From positions 1,156,389 through 1,170,703 of the forward strand of contig ML976984.1 of assembly GCA_010015675.1 (NCBI GenBank): 14,315 bases of DNA, given 5' to 3'. A program made the translations under genes and the position numbers. The notes beneath the pieces are model-generated. The model was given only the letters and a program-made list of their open reading frames with translations, was not told the origin of the DNA and did not search any database. Each line of letters opens with the position of its first letter. Position 1 is the stretch's first letter. The DNA comes from Byssothecium circinans (lineage: Eukaryota > Ascomycota > Dothideomycetes > Pleosporales > Massarinaceae). Positions 1 through 8,614 of the stretch are shown in pieces.

Positions 1-444
1 TATAGTATTTAACTACTAGGTAATAAGGAGTATATATAGAAATAAGAGCAGATTAATATAAGTATTAAATATACTCTTATATTCTAATAGTTATAAATGG
101 CGAGCGAATACATTAGAGCATAAAGCTACACCCCCTACAAAGTATCACGCAACGCTAACGTTAGACTCTAATCCTTTATCTAGTATTCTCTATACTCTAA
201 CGCTAGTCTAACCTTAATCTATACTAACGTCTACGCTGCATGTACTAACCGTACTAGGGGCTCCACTTAAGCAGTAGCTTCTTCGTGCGGCTAGTATTAG
301 TCTTAGTATTAGGCCACCGTCTTAGTCTTCAAATACGTTACTATTACCTTACTTATCCTAACTTCCCCTATTAGCACCGCTAAGCGCTATGACTCCTATT
401 AAACCCCTATTATTATTATAAACGCTTTCTAGTTAACCATTACC
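1..444. other. AT-rich non-coding left flank, possibly the Helitron 5' region
   Basis: No reading frame of interest is visible. The stretch contains one copy of the GTATTAG dyad (294-312) and a perfect 10-bp palindrome, CTAACGTTAG (156-165). The part around 118-160 (CTACACCCCCTAC and following bases) looks less RIP-mutated than its surroundings and could belong to the Helitron 5' end, but no TC terminus or A/T insertion site could be fixed. Confidence 0.4.
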
Positions 445-532
445 ATGGATGGCCGTGATATATTCTACATCATAGCCGTGGTATTTATAATAGCAAGGGG
501 AGAGTATTTTATAGAATACCCCTCTATCTTTA

Positions 533-593
533 GTATAATTACGCGATACTTGCTCTAGTATTAGTCCTAGTATTAGTTATACAACCTATACAG
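533..593 (+). other. Intron 1 of the Helitron relic (61 nt, contains the GTATTAG dyad)
   Basis: Donor GTATAA, acceptor ACAG. Removing 61 nt joins the frame opened by the ATG at 445 to the frame that runs from 594 to 2146 (codon A|CA, phase 1). The upstream frame hits stops inside the dyad (558-576). There is no convincing branch site, possibly because of mutation. Confidence 0.65.
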
Positions 594-595
594 CA

Positions 596-697
596 GCTAA
601 GTCTAAAGAATATGTGGTCGATAAGTTAGATAATAGTATAGTAGTAGCTAAGTCTCAAGAATATATAGTTAATAAGTTTAATAATAGTGTAGATAGA
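596..697 (+). repeat. Two tandem 51-nt (17-codon) units near the replicase N-terminus
   Basis: The segments starting at 596 and 647 each encode an AKS-x-EY-x-V-x-K-x-x-NS pattern, 17 residues apart. The two units differ mainly by transitions. The duplication keeps the frame, so it was probably a protein repeat of the once-active replicase. Confidence 0.6.
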
Positions 698-2146
698 AAG
701 ATACTTATAGAGGTAAAAGAGAATATATATAACTTCCCTCTAGAAGAGCCCCTATTATAAATTTAGGATGATAGTTCCTATCTTTCTGATCCTGCATTAT
801 CTAATTAAGATAAAACGTATATCTCTACGTTTTATAACGCACTTAAGAAAGAAGAGATAGAGACGTGTATAATTTATAACCATCATTAGTTTTGCCTAAA
901 CGTTCACCGTAGGGAATGTGCTGCCTATTTAACTAATTGCGTTAAACATAGTACTAAAGAGGATTAGGTGCCTATATTTAATGCTATAAATAATATAGAT
1001 CTAGGTGTAATGCCTAACCTCCCTTCTCTTACTAATGTTAAGGAGATGCTTATTGCCTAGGTTCACTGTTTTATGCAGATATATTAGCATCATGGGCAGC
1101 AGTATAAGTACAGAGGGCATATATGTCATTTCGCCATTAATATAGCTAGGGTATTTTCAAGGCTTTTTATCCTTCTATCTAAGTTTAATATTATTATCCT
1201 TAAATTACCATATTTAGATAAGGACGACCACGCTTCAGTTAAACGTTAATTCAAGAAGAGTTAGAAAGTAAGGCGCACTATAGTATTGCGTTAGCTATAA
1301 TAGTTAAAGGCACATCACTTTAGATATAGTAATATTATTATTAATGATAAGGCTATTTAAGAACTCCCTATTAATAGGTATGTAGACGATCAATTTACTA
1401 TGCTTTAGCATAGGGATATAGACATTAGGCTAGGGGATTATTCTAATATGTAAAAGCTAGTGTCGCCATCCTATACGCTAGACTATTCACCCCTACTATC
1501 TATACCTGCTGCGACCACCTATACACTAGATAGGTCACTACCTAATACTAGGCCTAATACTAGCGCGGATTCCTACTACGATGGTAGCTCAATTTTTGAT
1601 AAGGACGATAATGATGATAATAGAGCTGACATGACTATAGTTCCTAATATTATTCCTAATGTTAGTAAATTTGAGACTTTGCGTTATTAAATCTAATTAA
1701 GACCTTCTTACCTTACTATGGGCTCAGTGCGAAGGACACCTATTTCTAAATATAGTAATTAGGAAAAGATCCTTAGTCTTGCATTTCCTACCTTGTATCT
1801 AAATGGAATTGGTGACTATATGCAACTAAGGATGTAAGAGGTTGCATATGTAGACTATATTTAGCACATGATAAGCTATAAGGATGGACGTTTTACTTAT
1901 TACTTACGTTTCCGTTTTACTACCTTTAATACGCTTCTCCGCAGGCAAACTACTGCAAAGGTAGGTTTCTTTATAAGGAAGACACTAGACGGCGCTTCTA
2001 TGATGGCTAAGGATATTCAAGCTTAGTTTAATAGCGCTGATGGTGGGTAGAGTTTAATTAACGCTATAGTATAGTTCTCTACCTCTATTTAAGGTTCTTA
2101 TGCGTATTAGAAAGTAGAGGGTATAAACCTAAAGGCTATAGTACAT

Positions 2147-2205
2147 GTAGTCTACCTAATACCTAGCTAATACCCTTATTATTAACATCTAACTTTTATT
2201 AATAG
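2147..2205 (+). other. Intron 2 of the Helitron relic (59 nt, contains the dyad in reverse)
   Basis: Donor GTAGTC, branch candidate TCTAAC near 2190, acceptor AATAG. Removal moves the reading from frame 2 to frame 1 and brings the Helitron motif 'CPHLFIT-S-ADYY' directly after the AIVH segment, as in the family. The dyad lies at 2156-2173 in reverse orientation. Confidence 0.8.
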
Positions 2206-7176: not shown

Positions 7177-7992
7177 TGCAGCGAGAGGGCTTAGCAGGAT
7201 GTATTAGGTAGGTATTAGGCGTTATTTAGTAGTAGGGCAAATTTGCGTGTAGTACGTAGACGTTATATAAGGAGTATATAAGAAGTAGTGTTAAGTAGTA
7301 AATTTTTAGCAATAAGTTTATTTATAGTTACACGAAATTGAAAGTAGGGCTAGGCAGTAATTACGGGAAATTATCACTAGCCTATCGTGTGCGTTAAATG
7401 CGCTCAACACTTTATAACATAATTCTGGCATGAGCGTATGCAGCTTAGTTAGCTGCATAAGTACATACTAGAATCATAGTATTAAGTTAGGTATTAGTCT
7501 CTCTTTAAAAGCTATTTCCTATCTTTATACGTAGTTTTCTCACTAACATAATATTTTCTCTCTTATTTTACTTCTCTTTATGCCCTTACTTTTACTGCTT
7601 ACTTTCACCACTTACTCTTACTAGCTACCTTTATATTACCTTTTTACTTCTTGTACTTACCTACCACCCCGCACTTTAACAACTCTTAATCTTTATAATT
7701 TTGCTATCTTTATAGTCGCAAAGCTTTACAGCTATAGTATAGCTATAACTAAAGTATTAGGCTTAGTATTAGCCTTTCTATGTATATACTTCCCTATAAT
7801 TTCCCCTTCTATTGCTTACTAATTTTGACTTCCTTGCGTACTATTACTATTCCTATTTCTTACTTTTACTATTTTTATTTCTTACTTTTACTTTTACTAT
7901 TAACGTTATTAGTTTTCCATCTATTTTCTAACTAAAAAGTAGTTAGTTTACGTCTACCTTATTTTCTTTTATACACCTTACAACATACCATC
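7177..7992. other. Divergent intergenic region with dyads, hairpin and pyrimidine-rich tract
   Basis: The region separates the minus-strand relic (start 7176) from the histone-like relic (start 7993). It holds dyads at 7201-7218 and 7754-7772, an imperfect one at 7479-7497, and the hairpin at 7437-7459. From about 7500 to 7980 the plus strand is C/T-rich, as is usual upstream of highly expressed fungal genes, so this may be the old promoter and leader of the histone-like gene. No coding frame is seen. Confidence 0.5.
7437..7471 (+). other. Hairpin plus CTAG, candidate Helitron 3' terminus
   Basis: A perfect 9-bp stem (TATGCAGCT / AGCTGCATA) with a 5-nt loop is followed after 8 nt by CTAG at 7468-7471. 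Helitrons end in CTRR preceded by a short hairpin about 10 nt upstream, and this matches in form and orientation. An imperfect 8-bp inverted repeat (7399-7406 with 7431-7438) lies just upstream. The following base is A, not the expected T. Chance occurrence in AT-rich DNA cannot be excluded. Confidence 0.4.
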
Positions 7993-8071
7993 ATGGCCGC
8001 TAAGAAGAATTGAGGCAAGCTGCCTGTAAAGGCTCTTCGTGGTAGAGCTAGCAAGGGTCATAGCGCCTAAG

Positions 8072-8120
8072 GTAGGCTAGGTATTAGTCTTAGTATTAGC
8101 TACATGTTAACTATATCTAG
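8072..8120 (+). other. Intron 1 of the H3-like relic (49 nt, dyad)
   Basis: Donor GTAGGC, dyad 8081-8099, branch site GTTAAC, acceptor TCTAG. Joining exons 1 and 2 gives codon G|CT in the basic-tail frame. Confidence 0.75.
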
Positions 8121-8318
8121 CTTTAGGTCCTCGTAAGAAAGGCTAGAAGAAGCTTCCTACCAATACTAGCACGAACCTATATGAGGGTCGCAAGAAGAAG
8201 GGAGGGTCACCGCCACTAACACGGAAGCTAATAAGCTACGCTATGCAGAAGGAGCGTGCTCCTATCTATAAAGGCCCTAGCAAGGGAGGCCCTCACATTA
8301 GGCGTCGCAAGCCTAGTA

Positions 8319-8366
8319 GTAAGTTTTTAACCTATATTACTATAGCTAGACTAATACTAGTATTAG
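8319..8366 (+). other. Intron 2 of the H3-like relic (48 nt, inverted dyad halves)
   Basis: Donor GTAAGT, branch GACTAAT, acceptor TTAG. Removal recreates the H3 junction KPST-FTLAEIR. CTAATAC (8351-8357) and GTATTAG (8360-8366) face each other, so branch site and acceptor both lie within the repeat unit. Confidence 0.85.
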
Positions 8367-8564
8367 CCTTTACTTTAGCAGAGATCCGTTTCTACTAGAA
8401 GACTTTAGGTGACTTAATTCTAGTAGCGCTATTTAGGAGATTAGTTCGCGAGGTGCTATAGAATAATTAAGAGGGAAATAGTAACCCTATATCCTATTTC
8501 TAGTCTAAGGCTTTAGACGCCTTATAGGCTACTGCTAAGGCCTTCCTAATAGACATCTTATAAG

Positions 8565-8614
8565 GTATTAGTCTAATTCGTATAGTATTAGTCTCTGCTA
8601 ATAATAGTGCCTAG
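8565..8614 (+). other. Intron 3 of the H3-like relic (50 nt, widely spaced dyad)
   Basis: Donor GTATTAG is itself the first dyad half (8565-8571); the second half is at 8585-8591; branch GCTAAT, acceptor CCTAG. Removal aligns ...FLIDILQ-ATNLSAIYGKR with H3 residue by residue. Confidence 0.85.

What the first reader, a model, noticed from the sequence alone, without database searches (positions are those of the whole stretch)
294..8591. A dyad-bearing intron family: candidate introner-like elements
Seen: GTATTAG-N4-6-GTATTAG occurs in at least 14 pairs over 8 kb. Introns at 6066-6113, 6177-6225, 6807-6855 and 8072-8120 share one layout from the first base: GTAAG-like donor, dyad at about positions 10-31, CTAAC-like branch at about 35-40, TAG end, length 48-49 nt. 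They lie in two unrelated genes. Introns with dyads in other arrangements lie at 533-593, 2147-2205, 6310-6366, 8319-8366 and 8565-8614. Known: introner-like elements in some Dothideomycetes are near-identical spliceosomal introns that multiplied. Inference: this dyad is the core of a mobile intron or micro-insertion that spread before RIP.
Basis: partly seen in the sequence, partly recalled or inferred. Interest (0 to 1): 0.9.

Follow-up and report, generated by a model that had tools for sequence, protein, structure and literature searches.

The report
Paired motif array in fungal Helitron
A fungal jumping gene carries pairs of one seven-letter DNA word in nearly all its introns but also between and inside its genes, at places mostly kept in a diverged relative, which looks like a set of protein-docking sites rather than a spreading intron.

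Summary
In detail: 14 exact GTATTAG-N4-6-GTATTAG pairs against 0.01 expected. The interpretation mostly fails. Window 89-9038 is one copy of a Helitron2-like transposon encoding RepHel, an orphan protein and a histone H3-like protein, in a 48-Mb fungal genome, probably Byssothecium circinans. In a less mutated copy (C62), 15 direct pairs split 6 intron, 6 intergenic, 3 exon, in both orientations. Of 386 genomic pairs 100 are listed, 87 of them in copies of this family. A diverged Helitron family has an exact pair or array at 12 of 13 comparable sites; unit bases agree at 167 of 168, flanks at 164 of 360, and one exonic pair is a six-unit array there. This fits selected DNA sites evolving by tandem duplication, like the VANC21-bound motif of VANDAL21 transposons, rather than introner-like elements. 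Units do enter splicing: 8 of 9 introns carry two, and two introns use a unit as donor or acceptor. The binding protein and any anti-silencing role are inferred, not shown.

The parts
89..9038 (+). Helitron2-like transposon copy, truncated at its 5' end (complete C62 copy 9,507 bp)
   Evidence: Aligned to five other copies at about 91-93%; termini compared; C62 length
449..5358 (+). g1: RepHel gene (DUF6570, Helitron_like_N, PIF1), exons 449-2140 and 2206-5358, RIP-mutated
   Evidence: Pfam; 122 homologues, best 56% identical
5503..7176 (-). g2: orphan gene, five introns
   Evidence: C62 frames; no homologue; no Pfam; related frame in diverged family
7993..8739 (+). g3: histone H3-like gene, three introns
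   Evidence: PF00125; PDB H3 chains 8e-23; deposited protein P0121 168/168
2141..2205 (+). g1 intron, 65 nt, pair 2156-2173 in antisense orientation
   Evidence: Frame change and homologue junction
6975..7041 (-). g2 intron A, 67 nt, no unit
6807..6855 (-). g2 intron B, 49 nt, pair 6827-6844
   Evidence: equivalent intron with pair in diverged family
6310..6355 (-). g2 intron C, 46 nt, pair 6317-6335 in antisense orientation
6177..6225 (-). g2 intron D, 49 nt, pair 6198-6216; either this or intron E matches the three-unit intron of the diverged family
6066..6113 (-). g2 intron E, 48 nt, pair 6086-6104; following exon matches the diverged family after its three-unit intron
8072..8120 (+). g3 intron 1, 49 nt, pair 8081-8099
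   Evidence: acceptor may differ in the deposited model
8319..8366 (+). g3 intron 2, 48 nt; ends with CTAATACTAGTATTAG, so a unit supplies the acceptor; same place in the diverged family
   Evidence: H3 alignment KPG|TFAL; P0121; L051:1975-1990
8565..8614 (+). g3 intron 3, 50 nt; starts with a unit as donor, units separated by 13 bases; same spacing in the diverged family
   Evidence: H3 alignment LQ|ATNL; P0121; L051:2183-2209
294..312 (+). pair upstream of g1
558..576 (+). exonic pair in g1 (SIGPGIS)
1542..1560 (-). exonic pair in g1 (PNTRPNT)
3881..3899 (-). exonic pair in g1 (PNTSPNT); six tandem units in the diverged family
5361..5379 (-). pair just after the g1 stop codon
5471..5490 (-). 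pair between the 3' ends of g1 and g2
7201..7218 (+). pair just upstream of the g2 start codon
7479..7497 (+). pair between g2 and g3 (first unit GTATTAA in this copy, GTATTAG in C62)
7754..7772 (+). pair upstream of g3
8787..8803 (+). near-pair downstream of g3 (units 3 bases apart, second unit imperfect)
   Evidence: C62 GTATTAGGCGGTATGAG; exact pair with the same spacing at L051:2406

Best explanation
The pairs are conserved cis-acting DNA sites of a Helitron2-like transposon: an element-wide set of double sites (units GTATTAG, usually preceded by A or G, repeating every 10-14 bp and at a few places 20 bp). They evolve by tandem gain and loss of a unit of about 12 bp and sit wherever the element tolerates them: introns, UTRs, intergenic DNA and a few protein linkers. 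Most likely a protein, probably element-encoded (g2, the H3-like protein or the RepHel N-terminus), binds the paired units on one face of the helix and marks or activates the element's own copies, as VANC21 does at motif arrays of VANDAL21 transposons. Where arrays lie inside genes, units, which carry GT and TAG in sense and a CTAAT branch-like word in antisense, sometimes became part of a spliced intron. Shown here: the array, its concentration in these elements (in the listed part of the genome search), positional conservation, unit-versus-flank conservation, expansion at an exonic site, intron structure. Inferred: binding, which protein, the anti-silencing or activating role, intron birth.
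For: 14 pairs vs 0.01 expected. C62: 41 exact units vs 1.7 (maximum 7) in 500 shuffles; pairs (units GTATTAG, GTATTGG or GTATCAG) 6 intron, 6 intergenic, 3 exon. Genome: 386 exact pairs vs 6 for the reversed pattern; 87 of the 100 listed are in copies of this family. Diverged family: exact pair or array at 12 of 13 comparable sites; unit bases 167/168 identical with no transversion, flanks 164/360 identical with 107 transversions (without the exonic site 141/330 and 105). Spacers differ in sequence at all 12 sites and in length or unit number at five (5361, 5471, D/E, 7201, 3881). PNTSPNT site: six tandem units there. Six of the seven closest protein homologues (P0001-P0005, P0007) carry NTxxNT in that linker, P0003 a four-unit-like array, P0006 SITPSIT; the next 12 aligned (P0008-P0019) lack it. 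Precedent: YAGTATTAY in VANDAL21 introns and intergenic DNA, bound by VANC21, evolving by tandem repeats (PMC5735166, passages).
Against: No binding, expression or methylation data. g2 has no recognised domain or homologue, so no DNA-binding protein is identified. RIP cannot change the inside of GTATTAG, which inflates conservation (but RIP makes no transversions). The 167/168 figure is conditioned on sites where both families have units. Several sites were matched only by order and local context (5471, 7754, g3 intron 1). One of introns D and E has no counterpart. VANDAL21 arrays lie in one orientation at high density; here orientation is mixed and most sites have two units. The intron excess is not explained by docking alone. 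Only 100 of 386 genomic places were listed.
Confidence: 0.55

Rival explanations
1. Introner-like element: a mobile intron whose core is the pair multiplied through unrelated genes before RIP.
For: Eight of nine introns carry two units; three of four 48-49-nt introns with sense pairs start the pair at position 10; units supply a donor or acceptor in two introns; introns 2 and 3 of the H3-like gene are absent from the host H3 gene, which is uninterrupted over residues 6-125; intron D or E has no counterpart in the diverged family.
Against: 9 of 15 pairs are outside introns; orientation is mixed; introns share only the pair and splice signals; 87 of 100 listed pairs are in the transposon family; 12 of 13 comparable sites are shared with a diverged family; unit-bearing introns of 46-65 nt are near the 50-55 bp of ordinary fungal introns (PMC4457414, passages).
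Confidence: 0.08
2. Iteron-like or replication sites for the Helitron Rep/helicase, needed for rolling-circle copying or strand pairing.
For: The element encodes RepHel; direct repeats at about one helical turn resemble iterons (recalled); sites also lie in the 5' leader.
Against: Sites are spread over the whole 9.5 kb rather than near an origin; none of the ten papers listed of 43 for Helitron, iteron, Rep binding mentions Helitrons.
Confidence: 0.2
3. Host transcription-factor sites (enhancer or promoter array) recruited by the transposon.
For: Pairs lie upstream of g2 and g3 and in introns, which can host enhancers.
Against: Only 13 of 100 listed pairs lie outside this family, nine of them in one tandem array, where a host factor's own sites might be expected; sites also lie downstream of genes and in exons.
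Confidence: 0.15
4. Neutral tandem-duplication debris: short repeats kept identical only because RIP cannot touch GTATTAG.
For: The word lacks CpA and TpG; spacing is near 12 bp and arrays expand.
Against: Flanks carry 107 transversions in 360 sites and units none in 168; RIP makes transitions only; one seven-letter word recurs at many separate sites and in both families.
Confidence: 0.08

Closest known systems
VANDAL21 transposons and the VANC21 anti-silencing protein of Arabidopsis (PMC5735166, abstract and passages seen)
   Same: One short motif enriched in one transposon family, mainly in introns, intergenic and terminal noncoding DNA; rare elsewhere; gains and losses by tandem repeats; the motif YAGTATTAY even shares the core GTATTA (probably coincidence)
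   Different: Helitron in an ascomycete, not a Mu-like plant element; no VANC relative recognised; mostly pairs, mixed orientation; no binding or methylation data; the last base of the unit is G, not Y
Introner-like elements of Dothideomycetes (PMC4457414, abstract start and passages seen)
   Same: Spliceosomal introns with shared sequence in unrelated genes of a fungus of this class
   Different: Only the pair is shared; also outside introns; concentrated in a transposon; 46-65 nt; 12 of 13 comparable sites kept between diverged families
Helitron2/FoHeli elements of Fusarium (PMC5148889, passages seen)
   Same: RepHel; asymmetric terminal inverted repeat (5' TTTTGCGGAGCGA, 3' TCGCTCCGCAAA 36 nt from the end); a 3' hairpin as in FoHeli1 and 2; length as in the larger FoHeli group (9-11 kb)
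   Different: Ends in GGATCTTA; carries two further genes; a dispersed paired motif is not mentioned in the passages seen
hAT elements carrying histone H3 in Pseudocercospora and relatives (PMC6710886, abstract and passages seen)
   Same: A 9.5-kb RIP-mutated DNA transposon with an H3-derived gene in a Dothideomycete
   Different: Captured H3 there has no introns and lies in a hAT element; here three introns, a longer loop 1 and a Helitron

Membership tests
Introner-like element | Many near-identical intron copies in unrelated genes of the genome | tested here: not met
   Nine introns share only the pair and splice signals; 87 of 100 listed genomic pairs are in transposon copies
Introner-like element | Shared sequence confined to introns | tested here: not met
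   6 intergenic and 3 exonic of 15 pairs
Introner-like element | Recent gain: presence/absence between orthologues | tested here: inconclusive
   Introns B, C and H3-like 2 and 3 are present with units in the diverged family; H3-like 1 probably; one of D and E has no counterpart
Introner-like element | Spliced as introns | tested here: inconclusive
   Frames, protein alignment and a deposited model support splicing; no RNA data
Helitron2 | RepHel protein | tested here: met
   Pfam matches; homologues
Helitron2 | Asymmetric terminal inverted repeat and 3' hairpin | tested here: met
   Termini; fold of 3' end
Helitron2 | Insertion without target-site duplication | tested here: inconclusive
   Four 5' ends and more 3' ends compared; empty sites not sought
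VANC-type anti-silencing system | Short motif enriched in noncoding DNA of one transposon family and evolving by tandem repeats | tested here: met
[quoted passage not shown]
   Mostly pairs, both orientations; arrays of three and six only in the diverged family
VANC-type anti-silencing system | Element-encoded VANC protein that binds the motif and removes silencing | not testable with these tools
   g2 has no Pfam match or homologue; binding needs an experiment

The most novel reading that the evidence does not exclude
A fungal Helitron carries its own sequence-addressed chromatin system: an array of paired GTATTAG sites recognised by an element protein, working with an element-encoded H3-like histone with a long loop 1, to keep its copies open or otherwise marked; and the same units repeatedly turned into introns, because a unit supplies GT, TAG or a branch-like word, so the element hides its docking sites inside its genes.
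Probability: 0.15. Interest if true: 0.88.

Novelty: new variant of a known kind. Interest (0 to 1): 0.6.

Why it matters
If right, sequence-specific self-recognition by transposons, known from plant VANDAL elements, arose independently in fungal rolling-circle transposons, where RIP and silencing are strong. The array gives a direct handle (a defined unit and spacing) to find the binding protein. It also offers a case in which a DNA-binding array and intron birth may be linked, relevant to where new introns come from. It warns that a motif shared by introns need not be a mobile intron.

Tried and rejected
Introner-like element as a mobile intron: judged unlikely on location, orientation, concentration in the transposon and shared positions. 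Intron at 533-593: unnecessary. RIP product: unlikely for most units, since 29 of 36 are without a second base at 8% or more over the copies compared; but four units of pairs read GTATTGG (558, 1542, 5361 pairs) or GTATCAG (294 pair) in C62, so there GTATTAG may have arisen by RIP. RNA-level splicing signal as the only role: rejected, pairs also lie outside introns and in both orientations. Pairs outside the family: nine of the 13 listed outsiders are two copies of one 12-bp tandem array (L037, L038; possible SSNT-coding repeat); the other four are scattered. Degenerate pattern GYRYYRG pairs gave no excess over its reversed control, 3,023 vs 3,026, so the exact word matters. g2: no homologue, no Pfam match. 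A tblastn of the H3-like protein against the diverged copy L051 gave no match; a small profile did (6e-7 and 0.002 among six frames). No structure prediction was run, because the spliced proteins are not letter-for-letter in the DNA and g2 has no relatives.
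Full report
What was checked.

What the region is. Window 89-9038 matches five other fetched copies at about 91-93%. A 3.5-kb probe finds 38 stretches in the window's own 48.4-Mb genome; 22 of them (the window included) cover at least 3.3 kb, the others at 90-94% identity. In four fetched copies and C62 the element runs from a shared 5' end (TTTTGCGGAGCGA) to GGATCTTA, with TCGCTCCGCAAA and a hairpin near the 3' end. 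This is the asymmetric terminal repeat described for Helitron2-like FoHeli elements (PMC5148889, passages). The large gene has DUF6570, Helitron_like_N and PIF1 domains; its closest relatives (up to 56% identical) are unnamed metagenome proteins, and named fungal ones start at 40% (Fonsecaea monophora). The window copy lacks the first part of the element.

Genes and introns. The C62 copy has the same length over w89-9038 and gave the best Helitron_like_N match, with few stops; I used it only to read frames. They give g1 (449-2140, 2206-5358), g2 on the minus strand (7176 to 5503, five introns) and g3 (7993-8739, three introns). g3 is an H3-like histone, 46 of 83 core residues identical to the host H3 and 51 of 97 to a host CenH3-like protein, with a longer loop 1 than either; it is not clearly closer to CenH3. 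The spliced model equals the deposited protein P0121, 'histone-fold-containing protein [Byssothecium circinans]', over 168 of 168 residues, which also suggests the species (Pleosporales). The nine introns are 46-67 nt with GTA or GTG donors; eight of nine have two units. One, 6975-7041, has none.

Where the pairs lie. In C62 there are 48 units (GTATTAG, GTATTGG or GTATCAG; 41 exact, 1.7 expected) and 15 direct pairs of such units with periods of 11 (3), 12 (11) or 13 (1) bp: 6 in introns, 6 intergenic, 3 in exons of g1. Two further introns carry a palindromic pair (8351-8366) and a 20-bp pair (8565-8591). Introns are 471 bp of the 9,507-bp element. Among placements wholly in noncoding DNA, 12.8% fall in introns, so 6 of 12 noncoding pairs in introns is an excess (P = 0.002). 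Orientation to transcription is mixed.

Is it confined to the element? The genome has 386 exact pairs, the reversed pattern 6. Only 100 places are listed; by position I assign 87 to copies of this family and 13 elsewhere, nine of them in two copies of one 12-bp tandem array. With one mismatch allowed at N5 the counts are 410 and 27. The degenerate pre-RIP word gave no excess.

Conservation in a diverged family. Contigs C47 and C107 hold remnants of another Helitron family, C107 with the same 3' end; DNA identity to g1 is 75-80% where aligned and 73-75% in short g2 matches. The pieces read cover 13 pair sites of the window family. Twelve have an exact pair or array at the equivalent place: 3881, 5361, 5471, introns B and C, one of introns D and E, 7201, 7479, 7754, and g3 introns 1, 2 and 3. 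The three-unit intron of L036 was first matched to D; the exon after it matches the exon after E (59 aligned residues, 0 of 200 shuffles), while exon length and a global alignment favour D. Either way one of the two has no counterpart. For g3 a small profile finds the diverged exons before and after intron 3 in different frames (6e-7 and 0.002 among six frames), and the palindrome of intron 2 ends at the same distance from the next exon codons; intron 1 rests on splice signals and order. Sites 5471 and 7754 rest on order. For 12 sites, 167 of 168 unit bases are identical with no transversion, while 164 of 360 flanking bases are identical with 107 transversions; without the exonic site, 141 of 330 and 105 (one search gave 149 of 360 with a slightly different set). 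The comparison is conditioned on units being present in both. A further place downstream of g3 has a near-pair in C62 and an exact pair with the same 3-base spacing at L051:2406. At the exonic site 3881 the diverged family has six tandem units, read as repeated PNTL.

Protein relatives. P0001-P0005 and P0007 have NTxxNT at the linker of the 3881 pair; P0003 has PNTRRNTQPSTRPNT; P0006 has SITPSIT; P0007 has a second NTRPNT elsewhere; the next 12 aligned, P0008-P0019, lack it there.

How it most likely works. A word kept at many places while its surroundings turn over, in either orientation, paired at about one helical turn (or two), in and between genes, and changing copy number by 12-bp steps, is best explained as a DNA site for a protein. 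Its concentration in the element points to an element function. The closest described system is VANC21 and VANDAL21: the motif YAGTATTAY lies in introns, intergenic and terminal DNA, is rare in other transposons, and evolves by tandem repeats (PMC5735166, passages; PMC10398659, passages). The shared core GTATTA is noted but probably chance. Fungal transposons, Helitrons among them, are reported to carry another likely anti-silencing gene (TET/JBP; PMC12730594, abstract and passages). Which protein binds here, and to what end, is not shown.

The link with introns. Two mechanisms can explain the excess in introns: introns are the free space inside genes, and a unit can itself serve in splicing. 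In g3 intron 2 the acceptor is the end of a unit, in both families; in g3 intron 3 of C62 the donor is the start of one; the three-unit intron of L036 may also start with one. The host's H3 gene is uninterrupted over residues 6-125 and the CenH3-like gene has an apparent intron elsewhere, so g3 introns 2 and 3 are not shared with either. This fits intron birth from units within the element but does not prove it.

Not in print? Searches for introner with fungi and Helitron, Helitron with histone H3, fungi, captured (20 of 894 listed), Helitron with anti-silencing and fungal, Helitron with iteron or Rep binding (10 of 43 listed) and CENP-A, histone variant, Helitron listed no paper that by title or abstract start describes this array; the library lacks most subscription journals.

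Noticed in passing
window 7993-8739: The Helitron carries a histone H3-like gene with three introns and a loop 1 longer than in the host's H3 and CenH3-like proteins; the deposited relative P0121 has an intact frame.
   Followed up: partly
window 5503-7176: g2 is an orphan five-intron gene, without Pfam match or homologue in the protein search, but present in the diverged Helitron family.
   Followed up: partly
window 9984-13735: A palindrome of about 3.75 kb (88.9% self-complementary, arms about 1.9 kb) next to the Helitron, with partial copies at 9041-9988; looks like nested or inverted transposon copies.
   Followed up: no
L037 (C3:590273-590351), L038 (C7:131977-132019): Tandem arrays of GTATTAGAACTA (7 and 4 exact units) in two similar sequences that showed no relation to the Helitron by eye; possibly coding for SSNT repeats.
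   Followed up: partly
C62 copy, window coordinates about -233 to -58 (5' leader absent from the window copy): An inverted pair of units 16 bases apart and a direct pair with the same 13-base spacer length as g3 intron 3.
   Followed up: partly
L173 (C13:250773-251135): The host's CenH3-like gene, with an apparent intron after QRLV.
   Followed up: no
L036, after about position 2730: A repeat of the CTTAAGGAACTAAAGAGA type and then a masked stretch follow the diverged family's region next to its H3-like gene.
   Followed up: no
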